64,000 nucleotides of DNA. Origin: Rathayibacter agropyri. Lineage in GTDB: Bacteria > Actinomycetota > Actinomycetes > Actinomycetales > Microbacteriaceae. This document shows positions 7,469 to 13,693 of the stretch, in pieces. Made by a program: the position numbers and the translations under genes. Position 1 is the stretch's first letter, and each line of letters begins with the position of its first letter. The notes beneath the pieces were generated by a model. That model saw only the letters and a list, made by a program, of their open reading frames with translations, was not told where the DNA came from and did not search any database. The stretch is taken from contig NZ_JABRPL010000005.1 in NCBI RefSeq assembly GCF_013249015.1, forward strand, positions 99,075 to 163,074, written 5' to 3'.

Positions 7469-7554
7469 GGCGGTGTGTGATCTCGCGCCAGCGCGGCTTC
7501 TGTCTGCTGGCGTCTGACTAGTCTCCTGGAGCGAAGCTCACGTGGGAGGTGGTC

Positions 7555-9576
7555 ATGGAGACGTTTCGGTTTGATGACGAGGTGGCGGAACGGTTTGCGC
7601 GGAAGCTGGTGAAGGTGGCGGACGCGTTGAGGTCGCAGGTGGTGTTGCGTCGGGCGGCCGCTGAGCAGGCGATGCAGGATTTCAAGGGGCCTTATGCGCA
7701 GGTGTTTTGGTTCGCTCATCTGACGGAGACGACGAATCGGTCGCGGCTGGAAGCTGTGCTCTTCGATCTGTCGGAGGTGGTGCTCACCGCGATTTTGACG
7801 GCGCGGAAGGAGCGGGAGCGGCTGGAGGAGATGGCTGCGTGGGAGGCGCGTCAGGCTGAGCGGGAGCAGCGGCGGCGCATGGATCCGACGGCCGGTATGG
7901 GTTTTGATCCCGACGAGATTTTTGATCGGCGTCCGTCGGAGGATCGGATTGTTCCGCCGACGCTGTCGGTGTCGTATTCGCCGAATGAGCCGCCCCGTAC
8001 GACGGCCGCTGTCGGGATGACTCCGGCGGCCGGTTTTGGACAGACGTCTGCTGATCCTGATCGTTTGGATGTGTTCGTGTCGGATGCGCGGCAGGCGAAT
8101 ACGGCGTTGCGGGCGGAGCGGGAGGAGTTGCTGACAGCGTTTGCGACGTTCCAGGATGCGTGTGCGTGGGTGCCGTGGGAGTCGACGACGGCGTTGGGCG
8201 GGTTTGAGCGGTTGCTGACGATTAACCAGTCGCATGCGGACTGGGTCGAGCGGGTTTCTCTCGCGTTTACTGCGGCGGGCGGGGGGCTGTTGTCGACTCC
8301 GACTCTGGAGGTGGTGGCTACTGCGGGGCCGCCGAGGACTGATCAGAGCGTGCTGGATCTGCTGTCGACGGTGCCTGCGGATGAACTTGCGGTGCTGTTT
8401 AAGACCAGGCCGGAATTGGCTGCGCAACTGAAACGGATCCCGCCGACGGAGGTGAACGCGTGGTGGACGCGGCTCGGGCCGGCGGAGGATGGGGCCCGGT
8501 TCTCTGCGCGGCAGGAGGCGTTGATTGGTGGGCTGCCCGAGGTGATTGGGAATCTTGAGGGGGTGCCGTATGGGGCGCGGGCGGAGGCGAACGAGAGTGT
8601 GTTGACGGCACGGATTAAGGCGTTGAAGCAGCGGCAGCACGAGATGCTTTACGGTGTTCCGGACCTTGGTTCGGACGACTTCGTGGAGATGGCGAAGCAA
8701 CTTAAGGCGCTGGAGAACATCGCTGACTCTCTAAAGGTGCGCCCTGGTTTCGATGATCGGTTCCTTATCTCGTTGACGAACGATCATCCGCCCCTGGCGG
8801 CTGTGTCGATCGGTGATCTTGATACTGCGACGAATGTGACGTACGCGGTTCCGGGGATGGGGCAGACGACGGCGACCATGACGTCGTGGGCGAAGGCGTC
8901 GCAGAATGTGCAGTCGCTGTTGCCGCCGGGAAGTGCTGTGGTGGCGTGGATCGGTTATGAGACGCCTCCTTCGGCGGTCGAGAATCTCGACCCTTCGGTC
9001 TTAAGTATTGATGACGCTGTTGCGGGTGGTGCGGCTCTTGCCGTGTCTGTGCAGGGGCTTTCCGCTGTTCGAGGGGATTCGATTCCGAAGCCGGATGTCG
9101 TTGGGCATTCGTATGGGACGACGGTGATCGCTGTTGCTGCTTCGCGTTCTGATGTTGAATTTGGGACGTTTGTTGCTCTCGGGTCGGCGGGGTTGCCGGA
9201 TAGCGTTGATTCCGTGAGTGATCTGCATGTCGAGGGGATGTATGCGGTGCAGGCGCGGGACAGGTTTTCGACCGAGGAGGAGAGTGGCGATGAGGCGGCC
9301 TGGATCGGGCGTGAAAACAGCTTCGACCATCACGTGAATCCTGTTGATCTCGGCTTCGGTGCGCACGCGTTCGGTGTGGAGACCGGCGGGGATGCGGGGC
9401 GTGTCGTCACGAACCATGATGCTCTGAGGAGTGATGACGGTGATTCGGCGGGATACTTCGACATCAATACGGAAGCGCTCTTAAATACTGGACGTGCTCT
9501 TCGAGGTGAGACGGATCTCATTACGGAAAATAAGCCGCTCGGCCCTACCAAGTTTATGAAGTTTAGAAGGCGGTGA
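7555..9576 (+). CDS. Putative polymorphic toxin: WXG-like helical N-terminus plus DUF1023 alpha/beta-hydrolase
   Basis: 673 aa from ATG 7555, which follows a strong GGGAGGTGG ribosome site; an in-frame GTG at 7549 is an alternative. Residues ~1-110 are helical and charged with a FKGPYAQVFW turn resembling WXG100-type modules; ~110-165 is a Pro-rich linker; ~170-250 another helical segment; ~415-673 is an alpha/beta hydrolase of the DUF1023 type with nucleophile elbow VGHSYGTT (Ser519) and a likely catalytic His in TNHDAL. No signal peptide. The C-terminal third is duplicated downstream in truncated form, each copy followed by a lipoprotein gene as here. Codons ending in T/G without C (GTT, TTG, GCG) are far more common than in flanking genes, suggesting transfer. 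A contact-dependent lipase/esterase toxin is inferred; a housekeeping DUF1023 hydrolase is the alternative. Confidence 0.7.
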   Translation: METFRFDDEVAERFARKLVKVADALRSQVVLRRAAAEQAMQDFKGPYAQVFWFAHLTETTNRSRLEAVLFDLSEVVLTAILTARKERERLEEMAAWEARQAEREQRRRMDPTAGMGFDPDEIFDRRPSEDRIVPPTLSVSYSPNEPPRTTAAVGMTPAAGFGQTSADPDRLDVFVSDARQANTALRAEREELLTAFATFQDACAWVPWESTTALGGFERLLTINQSHADWVERVSLAFTAAGGGLLSTPTLEVVATAGPPRTDQSVLDLLSTVPADELAVLFKTRPELAAQLKRIPPTEVNAWWTRLGPAEDGARFSARQEALIGGLPEVIGNLEGVPYGARAEANESVLTARIKALKQRQHEMLYGVPDLGSDDFVEMAKQLKALENIADSLKVRPGFDDRFLISLTNDHPPLAAVSIGDLDTATNVTYAVPGMGQTTATMTSWAKASQNVQSLLPPGSAVVAWIGYETPPSAVENLDPSVLSIDDAVAGGAALAVSVQGLSAVRGDSIPKPDVVGHSYGTTVIAVAASRSDVEFGTFVALGSAGLPDSVDSVSDLHVEGMYAVQARDRFSTEEESGDEAAWIGRENSFDHHVNPVDLGFGAHAFGVETGGDAGRVVTNHDALRSDDGDSAGYFDINTEALLNTGRALRGETDLITENKPLGPTKFMKFRRR

Positions 9577-9582
9577 TCGGCG

Positions 9583-10206
9583 GTGCGAAAGACGTTTGGC
9601 CGTAGGCGTCGAGTCGGCCTGCACGTCGGCGCTTTGGTGATGATGGTGATGATGACAGGTTTGATGTCCGCGTGTGCGGAGAAAGGAGCGAATCCCGTGA
9701 ATACGATGAGTCCGCGGGAGGGACGCGACAAGGTGGTCGAATTGGTGGTGGGCACGACGAAGCAGCTTGATATTCAAGGCTGGTGGCCACGGACGGGTGC
9801 GGCAGTACCCGATGTGTGTTCTCTTGCCGGTGGTGCGGAGGGGGCGAGTTACAGTTACGCGCACGAGGCGCCGGAGGGGACAGATTTCTCTGGGGATGCG
9901 CGGAGGGTTGCGGCGTATTGGGAGTCGTTGGGGATGTCGGTTCGGGTTGCGGATTCGACTCGGCGACCGACTGTCTACGGTGAGGGTGGTCCCGTGTTGC
10001 GCGCCAGTTTCGATACGGGTGCGGCTGCCGGCACGTATCGGGTGGGCGCGGTCGCGCGGTGCGCTCCCGGGGATGCCGCCGGGCTCCTTGATGAGGATAA
10101 CGATCAGCGCGCAGCTGGCGTCGTTCTTCCTGGGGACGAGGGAATCGTCACGAAGTCGGATCGAGGGAAGAAGTCAGTGACACTTCCTGCGGAGCCGTCG
10201 GAGTGA
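9583..10206 (+). CDS. Lipoprotein 1, candidate immunity protein of the hydrolase
   Basis: 207 aa from GTG 9583, 6 nt after the hydrolase stop. Arg-rich n-region, hydrophobic stretch and lipobox LMSAC with lipidated Cys31, so it should sit on the outer face of the membrane. The mature part has conserved motifs shared with the two downstream paralogues (NPVNTMSPRE, LDIQGWWPR, DVCSL, YWESLGM, VARCAPG); two conserved cysteines (in DVCSL and ARCAP) may form a disulfide. Surface lipoproteins protecting against secreted lipases are known (TilA against TslA in Staphylococcus aureus), which is the model proposed here; no domain family was recognised. Confidence 0.65.
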   Translation: MRKTFGRRRRVGLHVGALVMMVMMTGLMSACAEKGANPVNTMSPREGRDKVVELVVGTTKQLDIQGWWPRTGAAVPDVCSLAGGAEGASYSYAHEAPEGTDFSGDARRVAAYWESLGMSVRVADSTRRPTVYGEGGPVLRASFDTGAAAGTYRVGAVARCAPGDAAGLLDEDNDQRAAGVVLPGDEGIVTKSDRGKKSVTLPAEPSE

Positions 10207-10254
10207 TCACTTGTTTGACCGACGACTTCCTCAGACCGACGAATTCCTCAATAG

Positions 10255-11082
10255 GGGTTACTCCGGGGCAGACGTCTGCTGATCCTGGGTGATCTTGATA
10301 CTGCGACGAATGTAACGTACGCGGTTCCGGGGATGGGGCAGACGGCGGCCACCATGGACTCGTGGACGAAGGCCTCACAGAATCTACAGTCGCTGTTGCC
10401 GCCGGGAAGTGCTGTGGTGGCGTGGATCGGTTATGAGACGTCTCCTCCGGCGGTCGAGAATGTCGACCCGTCGGTCTTCAACGTTGATGACGCTGTCGCG
10501 GGTGGCGCGGCTCTTGCCGTGTCCGTGCATGGGCTTTCCGCTGTTCGGGGGGATTCGATACCGAAGCCGAATGCGATCGGTCATTCGTATGGGACGACTA
10601 CTATCGCTGTTGCTGCTTCCCGTTCTGATGTTGAATTCGGGACGTTCGTGGCTCTCGGATCGGCGGGCCTGCCGGACAGCGCTGATTCCGTCAATGATCT
10701 TCATGTCGAGAGCATGTATGCCGGGCAAGCGCGGAGCAAGTTTCCGTTCGAGGAGGAGAGTGGCGATGAGGCGGCCTGGATCGGGCGCGAATACAGCGAT
10801 GACCACCACGTGAATCCTGTGGATCCTGGCTTCGGTGCTCGGGCATTCGGTGTGGAGACCGGCGGGGATGCGGGTCGTGTCGTCACGAATCATGACGCTT
10901 TGGAAAGTGATGACGGAGACCTCGTGGGGTACTTCGATGTCGGGTCTGAGGCGCTCCTGAATGCGGCAAACGCCCTCTCGGGAAAAACAGATTTACTGAC
11001 GGAATACAAGCCTCTAGGATTGACGGAGTTTCAGAATAACTCAATAAGGCGGCTGACGGGGGTGAATGTTGACTCTTGGTAG
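10255..11082 (+). pseudogene. Orphan C-terminal hydrolase cassette (copy 2, 5'-truncated)
   Basis: Reads in frame from 10255 but has no start codon with a ribosome site until ATG 10333, where it aligns with the middle of the full-length gene (VPGMGQT). From there ~249 residues follow the C-terminus of the full gene, including the nucleophile elbow IGHSYGTT and TNHDAL, so the hydrolase core could be active if fused to a delivery N-terminus. At 10268-10290 the copy joins sequence corresponding to 8040-8059 of the full gene directly to sequence corresponding to 8812 onward, an internal deletion scar. It has diverged more than copy 3 (own ending QNNSIRRLTGVNVDSW). Its end overlaps the next lipoprotein gene by 17 nt. 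Confidence 0.65.
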
Positions 11083-11677
11083 GCACAGAGGCGGCTTGGG
11101 TGTTTGTGGGCTGGTTGTGATGGTGGTGGGAATGATGTCCGGATGTGCGGAGAAAGGAGCGAATCCGGTGAACGCGATGAGTCCGCGGGAGGAACGAGAT
11201 AAGGTCGTGCAGTTGGTGGTTGAGACGACCAAGCAGCTGGACGTTCAAGGGTGGTGGCCGCGGAACGGTGCGGCGCGGCCGGATGTTTGTTCTCTTGCTG
11301 GTGGGGATACGGGTGCGAGTTACAGTTACTCGCACTGGGCGCCGGAAGGGACAGATTTTGCGGGGGATGCGAAGAAGGTGGCGGCGTATTGGGAGTCGCT
11401 GGGGATGGTGGTGCGGGTAGAGGATTCGATTCCGCGGCCGATGGTGTTCGGCTCAGGTGGGCCGGTGCTGAGGGCCGTGTTCGTGACCGGAGGGGTAGAG
11501 GACTCTTATCACGTCGATGCCGTGGCTCGTTGTGCCCCTGGGTACGCGGCGGGCATTCTCCGTGAGGACAATGCACAGCGGGAAGCGGGCGTAGTGCTTC
11601 CAGGAGATGAGGGCGTCGTGGAGAAGCCGAGTTCGCGGAAAAAGCCCGCGACACCCGCTCCGACTCCGGCGGAGTGA
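11066..11677 (+). CDS. Lipoprotein 2, candidate immunity paralogue
   Basis: 203 aa. ATG 11066 sits behind GGGGGTGA and overlaps the end of hydrolase copy 2. Signal peptide with lipobox MMSGC (lipidated Cys27). Same motifs as lipoprotein 1 (NPVNAMSPRE, LDVQGWWPR, DVCSL, YWESLGM, VARCAPG) but clearly diverged in the middle (PRPMVFGSGG, TGGVEDSYHVDA), as expected if it recognises the diverged hydrolase copy 2. Its TGA (11675-11677) is directly followed in the same frame by hydrolase copy 3. Confidence 0.65.
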   Translation: MLTLGRHRGGLGVCGLVVMVVGMMSGCAEKGANPVNAMSPREERDKVVQLVVETTKQLDVQGWWPRNGAARPDVCSLAGGDTGASYSYSHWAPEGTDFAGDAKKVAAYWESLGMVVRVEDSIPRPMVFGSGGPVLRAVFVTGGVEDSYHVDAVARCAPGYAAGILREDNAQREAGVVLPGDEGVVEKPSSRKKPATPAPTPAE

Positions 11678-12172
11678 TCGCCGTTCTCGGTCGTCGCCGT
11701 TGCTGCTTCGCGTTCTGATGTTGAATTTGGGACGTTTGTTGCTCTCGGGTCGGCGGGGTTGCCGGATAGCGTTGATTCTGTGAGTGATCTGCATGTCGAG
11801 GGGATGTATGCGGGGCAGGCGCGGGACAGGTTTCCGGCCGAGGAGGAGAGTGGCGATGAGGCGGCCTGGATCGGGCGTGAAAACAGCTTCGATCATCACA
11901 TGAATCCTGTTGATCCCGGCTTCGGTGCGCAGGCGTTCGGTGTGGAGACCGGCGGGGATGCAGGGCGTGTCGTCACGAACCATGACGCTCTGAGGAGTGA
12001 TGACGGTGATTCGGCGGGATACTTTGACATCGGCACGGAGTCGCTTGCGAATATTGGTCAAGCTCTTCGAGGCGAGGATAATGCCGTGACAGAAAATAAG
12101 CCGCTCGGCCCTACCGAGGGTATGAAGTTGAAGAAGGCGGTGATCGGTGGTGCGAAAGGCGTTTGGCCGTAG
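11678..12172 (+). pseudogene. Truncated hydrolase cassette (copy 3), nucleophile lost
   Basis: Open from the codon after the lipoprotein 2 stop, with homology to the full-length gene beginning near 11690, just downstream of the position of the GHSYGTT elbow, so the catalytic Ser is missing. From there to ~12120 the DNA is nearly identical to 9130-9570, marking a recent duplication. No ribosome site; only a TTG at 11759 is available. Relative to the full gene one extra base near 12125-12130 shifts the frame past the ancestral stop, so it now ends at 12172 inside the next lipoprotein gene. Best read as a non-functional remnant or recombination donor. Confidence 0.7.
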
Positions 12173-12776
12173 GCGTCGAGCTGGCTTGCGCGTCGGCGCG
12201 CTGGTGATGGTGATGATGATGATGACAGGTTTGATGTCCGCGTGTGCGGAGAAAGGAGCGAATCCCGTGAATACGATGAGCCCGCGGGAGGGACGCGACA
12301 AGGTGGTCGAGTTGGTGGTCGAGACAACGAAGCAGCTCGATATTCAAGGCTGGTGGCCGCGGGCCGGTGCTGCGAGTCCCGATGTGTGTTCTCTCGCTGA
12401 TGGGGCGGAGGGTGCGAGTTATAGCTACTCGCGTGAGGCGCCGGAGGGCACGGATTTCTTGGAAGATGCGCGAACGGTTGCGAAGTATTGGGAGTCGTTG
12501 GGGATGTCGGCGCGGGTCGTGGACTCGACTCCGCGACCGGCGGTCTACGGGGAGGGTGGTCCCGTGTTGCGCGCCAGTTTCGATACGGGTGCGGCTGCCG
12601 GTACGTATCGGGTTGACGCGGTCGCGAGGTGCGCTCCCGGGTATGCGGCGGGAATCCTTCGTGAGGACAACGCCCAGCGGGAAGCTGGTGCGGTGCTCCC
12701 GGGCGATGAGGGCGTCGTGCGGAAGCCGAGTTCGCGGCAAAAGTTCGCGACGCCTTCTCCGAGTCCGTCGGAGTGA
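12150..12776 (+). CDS. Lipoprotein 3, candidate immunity paralogue
   Basis: 208 aa from GTG 12150 (aligned with the start of lipoprotein 1; GTG 12147 would add one residue). Lipobox LMSAC, lipidated Cys32. Very close to lipoprotein 1 in the signal peptide and first half, while the second half (GYAAGILREDNAQREAGAVLPGDEGVVRKPSSR) is closer to lipoprotein 2, with REDNAQREAG and LPGDEGVV shared, suggesting a recombinant origin. Upstream neighbour is the broken hydrolase copy 3. Confidence 0.65.
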   Translation: MRKAFGRRRRAGLRVGALVMVMMMMTGLMSACAEKGANPVNTMSPREGRDKVVELVVETTKQLDIQGWWPRAGAASPDVCSLADGAEGASYSYSREAPEGTDFLEDARTVAKYWESLGMSARVVDSTPRPAVYGEGGPVLRASFDTGAAAGTYRVDAVARCAPGYAAGILREDNAQREAGAVLPGDEGVVRKPSSRQKFATPSPSPSE

Positions 12777-12802
12777 TCGCAGCGGATCTGCTGACCGAGA
12801 AG

Positions 12803-12879
12803 ACGTACGCGGTTCCGGGGATGGGGCAGACGACGGCGCCCCATGACCTCGTGGGCGAAGGCGTCGAAGAATGTGCAGT
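12803..12879 (+). pseudogene. Last scrap of the hydrolase gene (copy 4)
   Basis: About 77 bp almost identical to 8839-8915 of the full-length gene (begins ACGTACGCGGTTCCGGGG, ends AATGTGCAGT), with a small insertion near 12837 that breaks the frame. It is joined without gap to the FBP-domain remnant. This marks the right-hand limit of the repeated locus. Confidence 0.75.
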
Positions 12880-13093
12880 TACTGTCGGGGCGCGCAAGGC
12901 GGGAGCGGCGGGCCGGGCCGGCGACTCGATTGGCACGCTGGTCTGCTCGGAGTTCGAGTGCTCGGTGAACGTGCGTCAGCGCCCGCCGGTCGCGTACATC
13001 GGCTTCGATGTCGACGCGGCGCGGGCGGAGCGGATCGCGACGCTGTGGGAGCGCACGATCGGCTTCGTGCGCGAGGTGCTGGGCGTGGCGTGA
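12880..13093 (+). pseudogene. FBP-domain (EF-G-binding FusB-like) protein, C-terminal remnant
   Basis: The ~70 residues ARKAGAAGRAGDSIGTLVCS, EFECSVNVRQRPP… and the closing helices match the C-terminal treble-clef zinc finger of FBP/FusB-like proteins, which bind elongation factor G and can rescue ribosomes. Only the second cysteine pair (C-x4-C) remains; the first zinc-binding pair and the whole helical N-terminal domain are gone, replaced by the toxin-gene scrap at 12803-12879. G+C returns here to the chromosomal level. Likely inactivated when the toxin array expanded or inserted. Confidence 0.65.
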
Positions 13094-13099
13094 GGAGCG

Positions 13100-13693
13100 T
13101 CAGCGGCGGGTGGAAGCACGCACGTGCATCCGCTCGCCCTGCCTGCCGAAAAGGCTGAGGAATTCGACCGGCTGCTCATCGGCGCGGCCGAACCAGTGCG
13201 GGACGCGAGTGTCGAACTCGGCGGCCTCGCCCGCGGGCAGGACGAGGTCGTGCTCACCCAGGAGCAGACGCAATCGGCCACTGAGGATGTAGAGCCACTC
13301 GAAGCCCTCGTGGGTGCGTTGCTGGTCCGGCTCGGGCACCGGGCCGCCCGGGAAGGTGTGCTTGAAAGCTTGCAGTGCGCCCGCGTCGCGGCTGAGCGGC
13401 TGGATGATCATCCCGTCCCGCCGTATCGGGCGCCCGTGCACACGCGGGTCCTCGGGGGCGGCGCCGACGAGTTCATCGAGCGGCACTTTCAGGGCGCGAG
13501 CGATCGGGAGCAGCAGCTCGAGCGTCGCCCGTCGCCCGCCGCTCTCGAGCCGGGAGAGGGTGCTCGCGGAGATACCGGTCTCGGTGGAGAGGGAGGCGAG
13601 AGTGCGGTCGCGGCGGGCGCGGAGTCGGCGCAATCGGGGCCCGACGGCGGCCAGCACCTCGTCGTCGGCGGGGGCGGGAGTGTCATCGTGCAT
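13100..13693 (-). CDS. XRE-family regulator with cupin domain
   Basis: 197 aa from ATG 13693; longer in-frame starts run across the promoter of the divergent gene. Residues ~15-75 are an XRE helix-turn-helix (LRRLRARRDRTLASLSTETG, then ISASTLSRLESGGRR), and ~110-190 a cupin barrel (HEGFEWLYILSGRLRLLLGE, LPAGEAAEFDTRVPHWFG). This class senses a small ligand through the cupin. Divergent from the flavoprotein gene at 13782, whose promoter region contains repeated TCGTGC/GCACGA half-sites, so that gene is its probable target. Confidence 0.85.
   Translation of the reverse strand: MHDDTPAPADDEVLAAVGPRLRRLRARRDRTLASLSTETGISASTLSRLESGGRRATLELLLPIARALKVPLDELVGAAPEDPRVHGRPIRRDGMIIQPLSRDAGALQAFKHTFPGGPVPEPDQQRTHEGFEWLYILSGRLRLLLGEHDLVLPAGEAAEFDTRVPHWFGRADEQPVEFLSLFGRQGERMHVRASTRR

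What the first reader, a model, noticed from the sequence alone, without database searches (positions are those of the whole stretch)
7549..13093. Candidate undescribed polymorphic toxin-immunity array: DUF1023 hydrolase with lipoprotein immunity and orphan toxin-tip cassettes
Seen: one full-length gene with a helical WXG-like N-terminus and a C-terminal DUF1023 alpha/beta-hydrolase (VGHSYGTT), followed by repeats of only its C-terminal part, each followed by a paralogous lipoprotein gene; base composition is lower in G+C than both flanks. Known: polymorphic toxin loci carry a full toxin plus promoterless C-terminal cassettes with cognate immunity genes, and S. aureus T7-secreted lipase TslA is neutralised by the surface lipoprotein TilA. 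Inference: this is a lipase/esterase toxin acting at the membrane or envelope, with lipoproteins as immunity and cassettes as a store for switching specificity.
Basis: partly seen in the sequence, partly recalled or inferred. Interest (0 to 1): 0.88.

Follow-up and report, generated by a model that had tools for sequence, protein, structure and literature searches.

The report
Hydrolase toxin with tandem lipoprotein immunity array
A plant-associated bacterium carries a probable secreted fat-cleaving toxin followed by three probable protective surface lipoproteins and leftover toxin ends, a gene set that recurs in related bacteria and whose pieces have recombined with one another.

Summary
A 673-aa DUF1023 (PF06259) alpha/beta-hydrolase gene is followed by three paralogous lipoprotein genes and three truncated pieces of the hydrolase gene. 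R. iranicus has the same array at the same site, truncated differently. The lipoprotein family matches no Pfam model. In 70 Microbacteriaceae genomes 46 of 49 lipoprotein matches lie within 6 kb behind a DUF1023 gene, up to six in a row. Export: the first ~250 residues are shared with RHS toxins near an EccC-like ATPase; one genome has WXG100, EccC-like ATPase, hydrolase and a distant lipoprotein in a row; in Rathayibacter, DUF1023 genes and one type VII-like locus occur in the same 3 of 15 genomes. New here: between window and R. iranicus the hydrolase core of full gene and cassette 3 groups by species, while the last ~40 residues plus lipoprotein group by unit (break 9432-9459; 0 of 20000 permutations). 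So full gene and cassette recombine while tail and lipoprotein stay together. Best reading: a type VII-exported envelope esterase/lipase toxin with lipoprotein immunity, working like TslA-TilA but not homologous to it. Toxicity, substrate and binding are untested; whether cassettes are switching donors or debris is open.

The parts
7555..9576 (+). Full-length DUF1023 hydrolase, 673 aa: two helical hairpins, helical linker, alpha/beta-hydrolase, variable tail
   Evidence: AlphaFold mean pLDDT 90.9
7555..8319 (+). N-terminal export-type module (aa 2-255), shared with RHS toxins near an EccC-like ATPase
   Evidence: profile E 2e-24 and 2.9e-22; direct BLASTP E 5.5e-12, 29% over 247 columns
8791..9456 (+). 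Alpha/beta-hydrolase core, Ser519 and His621
9459..9576 (+). Variable C-terminal tail (from aa 635) that groups by unit with the lipoprotein
9583..10206 (+). Lipoprotein 1 (207 aa, lipobox Cys31), proposed immunity
10266..10287 (+). 22-nt scrap of the toxin's N-terminal linker in front of remnant 2
10288..11082 (+). Toxin remnant/cassette 2 (aa ~420 to end; Ser and His kept)
11066..11677 (+). Lipoprotein 2 (203 aa)
11688..12172 (+). Toxin remnant/cassette 3 (aa ~523 to end; no catalytic Ser); core recombined with the full gene
12147..12776 (+). Lipoprotein 3 (209 aa)
12802..12898 (+). Toxin remnant 4 (scrap, aa ~429-456), inside the FBP ORF
12773..13093 (+). 5'-truncated FBP_C gene at the right edge of the array

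Best explanation
The first gene makes an antibacterial toxin: an N-terminal pair of helical hairpins directs export by a type VII-like system, and a C-terminal serine hydrolase (esterase/lipase fold) attacks an envelope substrate, probably a lipid ester. The lipoproteins sit on the outside of the membrane and bind the hydrolase to protect the producer and its kin. Tandem duplication of the toxin-lipoprotein pair gave an array in which extra toxin copies lost their 5' parts while the lipoproteins stayed intact, so the cell keeps immunity to several variants. The hydrolase core recombines between cassette and full gene; tail and lipoprotein stay together as one linked module. Shown: anatomy, conserved linkage, shared N-terminal domain, type VII-like co-occurrence, recombination breakpoint. 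Inferred: toxicity, lipid substrate, binding, export.
For: 46 of 49 lipoprotein matches in 70 genomes lie 3' of a DUF1023 gene on the same strand within 6 kb; 12 of the 23 such loci have 2 or more. N-terminal module (aa 2-255) shared with two RHS toxins, each behind a small gene of which the one tested is WXG100-like. WXG100 (E 1.2e-14) - FtsK/FHA ATPase - DUF1023 - distant lipoprotein (E 7.5e-4) in a row in L124; ATPase next to DUF1023 in L123. In 15 Rathayibacter genomes, DUF1023 genes at E below 1e-12 and a 434-aa neighbour of the ATPase occur in the same 3. All 14 genomes with a long (600 aa or more) DUF1023 ORF have an EccC-like ATPase ORF of 1300 aa or more, against 31 of 56 others (counted by eye, cut-offs chosen after seeing the data). 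Ser519 is invariant in 25 aligned relatives and His621 in 90% or more. Esterases lead the fold matches, with cutinases and lipoprotein-associated PLA2 among the best. All 6 lipoprotein genes of the window and R. iranicus arrays are open, dN/dS 0.17 and 0.22 for the two orthologous pairs, while 2 of the 6 lipoprotein-bearing units have a full toxin. Toxin core and adjacent lipoprotein distances correlate, r 0.94, 18 units; common descent alone could give this.
Against: No test of toxicity, secretion or binding. No WXG100/LXG Pfam match in the N-terminus. The ATPases are EccC-like only: none of 15 Rathayibacter genomes and 13 of 70 family genomes pass the curated TIGR03925 cut-off, and the WXG100 match beside the RHS toxin is below Pfam's cut-off. 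No whole genome is held for the window, so a type VII system there is not shown. 36 of 59 DUF1023 loci have no linked match at the survey threshold; 29 of these are ORFs under 600 aa, perhaps another class. 6 of 49 lipoprotein matches have a stop inside the matched frame. 3 of 49 are not linked.
Confidence: 0.7

Rival explanations
1. Same toxin-immunity system, but the toxin pieces are only debris of tandem duplications; selection keeps the lipoprotein genes and the pieces ride along. They are not donors for switching.
For: 6 of 8 pieces in the window and two R. iranicus arrays lack the catalytic serine: window pieces 3 and 4, the R. iranicus unit-2 piece (aa 629-685), and all three of its second array (start at aa 542, 550, 577; nucleophile 530). 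Scraps of N-terminal linker next to pieces fit internal deletions. Only 5 of 50 lipoprotein-bearing toxins show pieces. Unit 1 tail and lipoprotein did not switch since the two species split.
Against: 8 of 10 pieces found keep the toxin's 3' end in front of a lipoprotein (exceptions: window piece 4 and the L091 piece). Three (window 2 and 3, R. iranicus 3) are open to the end, and the orthologous cassette 3 pair has dN/dS 0.15. The site pattern implies recombination of cassette and full gene in both lineages.
Confidence: 0.5
2. A housekeeping envelope enzyme with a lipoprotein partner (foldase, anchor or regulator), not a toxin.
For: DUF1023 genes are found in 39 of 70 family genomes, and shorter ones mostly lack the lipoprotein (29 of 33). 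No toxicity data.
Against: Patchy: 3 of 15 Rathayibacter genomes, with 4-6 copies each; tandem, unequal lipoprotein numbers up to six; N-terminal domain shared with RHS toxins; low G+C at a site where relatives have an intact FBP gene.
Confidence: 0.14
3. A secreted effector aimed at a plant or nematode host, with lipoproteins serving secretion or folding.
For: Rathayibacter are plant-associated (recalled, general knowledge); type VII systems can carry host-directed effectors (recalled).
Against: The same pair occurs in Leucobacter, Klugiella, Leifsonia, Agromyces and Microbacterium, not all plant-associated (recalled); variable immunity-like arrays are not expected for host effectors.
Confidence: 0.08

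Closest known systems
TslA-TilA of Staphylococcus aureus (PMC10730906; passages read)
   Same: Type VII-linked serine lipase toxin; immunity is a lipoprotein; immunity gene next to the toxin-domain end; variable numbers of tandem immunity lipoproteins; helical export part
   Different: TslA has the lipase at the N-terminus; immunity there is DUF576, here a family without Pfam match; TslA needs small partners TlaA1/2, and no such gene was seen beside the window gene (by eye); no toxin-tail cassettes in the passages read
EsaD-EsaG, TspA-TsaI, TelC-TipC immunity arrays (PMC9484751; passages read)
   Same: Strings of non-identical immunity paralogues behind or near a type VII toxin; homologous recombination shapes EsaG and TipC arrays; a small pseudogene with part of the toxin lies at the tsaI locus
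   Different: Other toxins and families, Bacillota; there the recombination described is between immunity genes, here the toxin core recombines while tail plus lipoprotein stay together
Polymorphic toxin systems of Zhang et al. 2012 (PMC3482391; passages read), incl. Tox-ABhydrolase1-3 and Imm65 (lipobox)
   Same: Shared N-terminal trafficking domain, C-terminal toxin, adjacent immunity gene, 3' cassettes; alpha/beta-hydrolase toxins and a lipobox immunity family both have precedents
   Different: DUF1023 is not in the passages read, and the paper is not among the four that hold the word (part of its text is not held); cassettes here carry the same toxin domain, not new ones
DUF4853 (PDB 4mjg, Actinomyces)
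   Different: No sequence match; no held paper names it

Membership tests
DUF1023 / Abhydrolase_8 (PF06259) | Profile match over curated cut-off | tested here: met
   54.7 bits against cut-off 20.5
DUF1023 / Abhydrolase_8 (PF06259) | Serine nucleophile motif and catalytic His | tested here: met
   Ser519 invariant in 25 aligned sequences, His621 in 90% or more
Polymorphic toxin system | N-terminal trafficking domain shared by toxins with different C-terminal domains | tested here: met
   aa 2-255 shared with RHS/DUF6531 proteins; that it traffics is inferred
Polymorphic toxin system | Putative immunity gene 3' of the toxin | tested here: met
   Linkage 46 of 49; protection itself not tested
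Polymorphic toxin system | 3' cassettes encoding alternative toxin domains | tested here: not met
   Cassettes encode the same hydrolase C-terminus
Type VII (WXG100/LXG) substrate | WXG100 or LXG domain by profile | tested here: not met
   No Pfam match at E up to 0.1
Type VII (WXG100/LXG) substrate | WXG-like helical hairpin N-terminus | tested here: inconclusive
   Model has hairpins H8-40/H46-109 and H168-202/H213-240; N-terminus not searched alone
Type VII (WXG100/LXG) substrate | Export depends on EccC/EssC | not testable with these tools
   Only linkage and co-occurrence
TslA-TilA | N-terminal lipase, C-terminal helical domain | tested here: not met
   Order is the other way round
TslA-TilA | DUF576 immunity lipoprotein | tested here: not met
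   0 of 48 family members match any Pfam model at E up to 0.01
DUF4853 | Profile match | tested here: not met
   fold resemblance only

The most novel reading that the evidence does not exclude
Long DUF1023 hydrolases are a large unrecognised class of type VII-exported antibacterial lipases in Actinobacteria with a new lipoprotein immunity family, and the unit of specificity is a ~40-residue toxin tail plus its lipoprotein: cassettes carrying this module recombine with the full gene inside the constant hydrolase core, so a cell can change immunity group without changing its enzyme.
Probability: 0.3. Interest if true: 0.8.

Novelty: new variant of a known kind. Interest (0 to 1): 0.62.

Why it matters
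DUF1023 proteins are common in this family (39 of 70 genomes) and I found no paper giving them a function. This gives many of them a testable role and names a lipoprotein family as likely immunity. It would extend lipoprotein-protected type VII lipase toxins from Bacillota to Actinobacteria by a non-homologous route. The recombination breakpoint suggests which short part of the toxin the lipoprotein may recognise.

Tried and rejected
Partial Mantel test for tail-specific co-divergence with the lipoprotein across 18 units (a 19th was dropped for lack of a tail anchor): partial r 0.18, 367 of 5000 permutations as high, so not significant; the core-lipoprotein correlation is far stronger. The tail-as-specificity idea therefore rests on the four-sequence breakpoint and on the fall of identity in the tail.

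DUF4853 in 246 genomes of the phylum: no match, and no control rang, so inconclusive. PADLOC: no match. NCBIfam: nothing near a cut-off. Plasmids: 16 records, all under 60% identity, none with one place covering 80% of the query. Rfam and tRNA: nothing in the window. Promoter/terminator scan uninformative. A strict lipobox pattern found adjacent lipoproteins for only 22 of 51 DUF1023 genes; it misses overlapping starts and membrane-anchored members, so the profile search replaced it. One search failed to detect cassettes because of a wrong BLAST option; one search replaces it. The counts 45 of 70 (EccC-like ATPase ORF of 1300 aa or more) and 26 long DUF1023 ORFs were read by eye; the listing was cut at its weak end.

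I lowered the main confidence from 0.72 to 0.70 because the ATPases mostly fall below the curated type VII cut-off.
Full report
What is there. The window is from a Rathayibacter: its hydrolase is 89% identical to that of R. iranicus at the same locus, and the flanks are about 90% identical in DNA. The array holds one full DUF1023 hydrolase gene, three lipoprotein genes and three truncated hydrolase pieces. It has G+C 0.613 between flanks of 0.69. Its left neighbours are an MFS transporter and a MarR regulator; its right end cuts into an FBP_C gene. Among 15 Rathayibacter genomes 13 have a full-length FBP_C match, 11 of these with the same right-hand neighbours; the two without a full match (G001 = R. 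iranicus, none at E 0.001; G019, positions 52-155) are those with an array at this site (L001, L097). So the array looks like an accessory insertion at one place, shared by the window, R. iranicus and G019.

Conservation of the pair. From 22 loci found by sequence and further ones taken by profile, 50 of 68 distinct DUF1023 toxins, the window's included, have at least one lipoprotein of this family behind them and 28 have two or more; 18 have none at E 1e-4, two of these at contig ends. That set is enriched, because the 20 loci were picked largely for lipoprotein or type VII matches. The unselected figure comes from 70 genomes drawn evenly from the family: 59 DUF1023 loci in 39 genomes, 49 lipoprotein matches in 15, 46 of these within 6 kb 3' on the same strand; 23 of 59 DUF1023 loci linked, 12 with two or more, up to six. 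Long DUF1023 ORFs (600 aa or more) are linked in 19 of 26, shorter ones in 4 of 33 (Fisher p 2e-6; counts by eye). Five of the seven unlinked long ones have a weaker relative behind them when read (L087, L088, L124, L130, L141). The family reaches Kitasatospora (L018, L019).

Export. Residues 2-255 align with the N-termini of two proteins with RHS repeats in R. tanaceti (L101) and G019 (L102): profile E 2e-24 and 2.9e-22, direct BLASTP E 5.5e-12 and 4.8e-11. RHS and DUF6531 were confirmed for the G019 one. Each lies directly behind a small gene; the one tested matches WXG100 at E 7e-4, below Pfam's cut-off. Both stand a few kb from an EccC-like FHA/FtsK ATPase (in R. tanaceti its ORF runs into the contig end). 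Sharing one N-terminus among unrelated toxin bodies is the mark of a trafficking domain. In L124 a WXG100 protein (E 1.2e-14), such an ATPase, a DUF1023 toxin and a distant lipoprotein (E 7.5e-4) follow each other on one strand. In the genus, DUF1023 genes at E below 1e-12 occur in 3 of 15 genomes and the 434-aa neighbour of the ATPase in the same 3 (1 in 455 by chance). Other type VII-like loci occur in Rathayibacter genomes without DUF1023, so the co-occurrence concerns this locus type. None of these Rathayibacter ATPases passes the TIGR03925 cut-off. R. toxicus is reported to have type VII proteins and many YD/RHS proteins in variable regions (PMC5552033, one passage). The window's own genome is not held.

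Array dynamics. Units 1 and 3 of the window and of R. iranicus were compared site by site. Of 97 informative sites, those from 9122 to 9432 (hydrolase core) read 21 by species, 0 by unit, 1 other; from 9459 through the tail and lipoprotein they read 7 by species, 65 by unit, 3 other. The break statistic is reached in 0 of 20000 permutations. Identities say the same: core 95.8% (window 1 vs 3) and 93.2% (R. iranicus 1 vs 3) against 87.5-88.1% across species; tail 90.7% and 89.9% between same-numbered units across species against 72-76% within species; lipoprotein 89.4% and 90.2% against 82-84%. Recombination between full gene and cassette after the species split, at least once in each lineage, explains this best; its direction is unknown. 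Unit 2 lipoproteins of the two species are not orthologous (dS about 1), so units turn over. Identity falls over the last ~120 nt of the toxin in the three comparisons made (window cassettes 2 and 3, R. iranicus cassette 3), though the final bin recovers to 0.87-0.89 in the two cassette-3 comparisons. A second R. iranicus array (L143) has five lipoproteins, one full toxin and three pieces, all without the nucleophile. R. iranicus unit 2 and a Leifsonia locus (L116) keep little more than the tail in front of the lipoprotein.

Mechanism. Because the proposed immunity protein is a lipoprotein, expected outside the membrane, the toxin should act there; an esterase fold makes a lipid ester the likeliest target. 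This is inference. The layout is that of S. aureus TslA-TilA, where a lipase toxin is bound by a lipoprotein with Kd 14.2 nM (PMC10730906, passages), but order of domains and both families differ.

Literature. Four papers of the held library hold 'DUF1023'. Two were opened at the word: PMC8467076 lists a gene in a table of a transformation screen, PMC11878206 only cites a 2005 paper that assigned DUF1023 to the alpha/beta hydrolases, and elsewhere names Abhydrolase_8 for its lid position. The other two were seen only in the listing. No paper holds Microbacteriaceae, type VII secretion, toxin and immunity together. 'Abhydrolase_8' gave two listed works, neither on toxins by title. Most subscription journals are not held, so prior description there cannot be excluded.

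Noticed in passing
12773-13093; L158; L145-L155: The FBP_C gene is full-length in 13 of 15 Rathayibacter genomes and truncated or undetected in the two where the array sits; the site looks like an insertion point.
   Followed up: partly
L104 (G019), L103 (R. iranicus): A second, Bacillota-like type VII locus (WXG100, YukD, YukC, EssC-size ATPase, an LXG protein with a GH-E nuclease tip); in R. iranicus the ATPase appears as two ORFs.
   Followed up: no
L126 (G034:C2:773000-784000): One DUF1023 toxin followed by six tandem immunity-like domains, some two per protein and, by eye, with a membrane anchor instead of a lipobox.
   Followed up: partly
L088, L096, L087, L105: A second, more distant lipoprotein subfamily (DAAG motif) behind DUF1023 genes, in tandem at several.
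   Followed up: no
L100, L102: The EccC-like ATPase is preceded by two proteins (about 940-950 aa and 434 aa); those of L102 have no clear Pfam match. Possible new parts of this type VII-like locus.
   Followed up: partly
7500-13500: Positive GC skew (+0.15 to +0.32 per kb window) over the array, higher than most of the flanking windows profiled.
   Followed up: no
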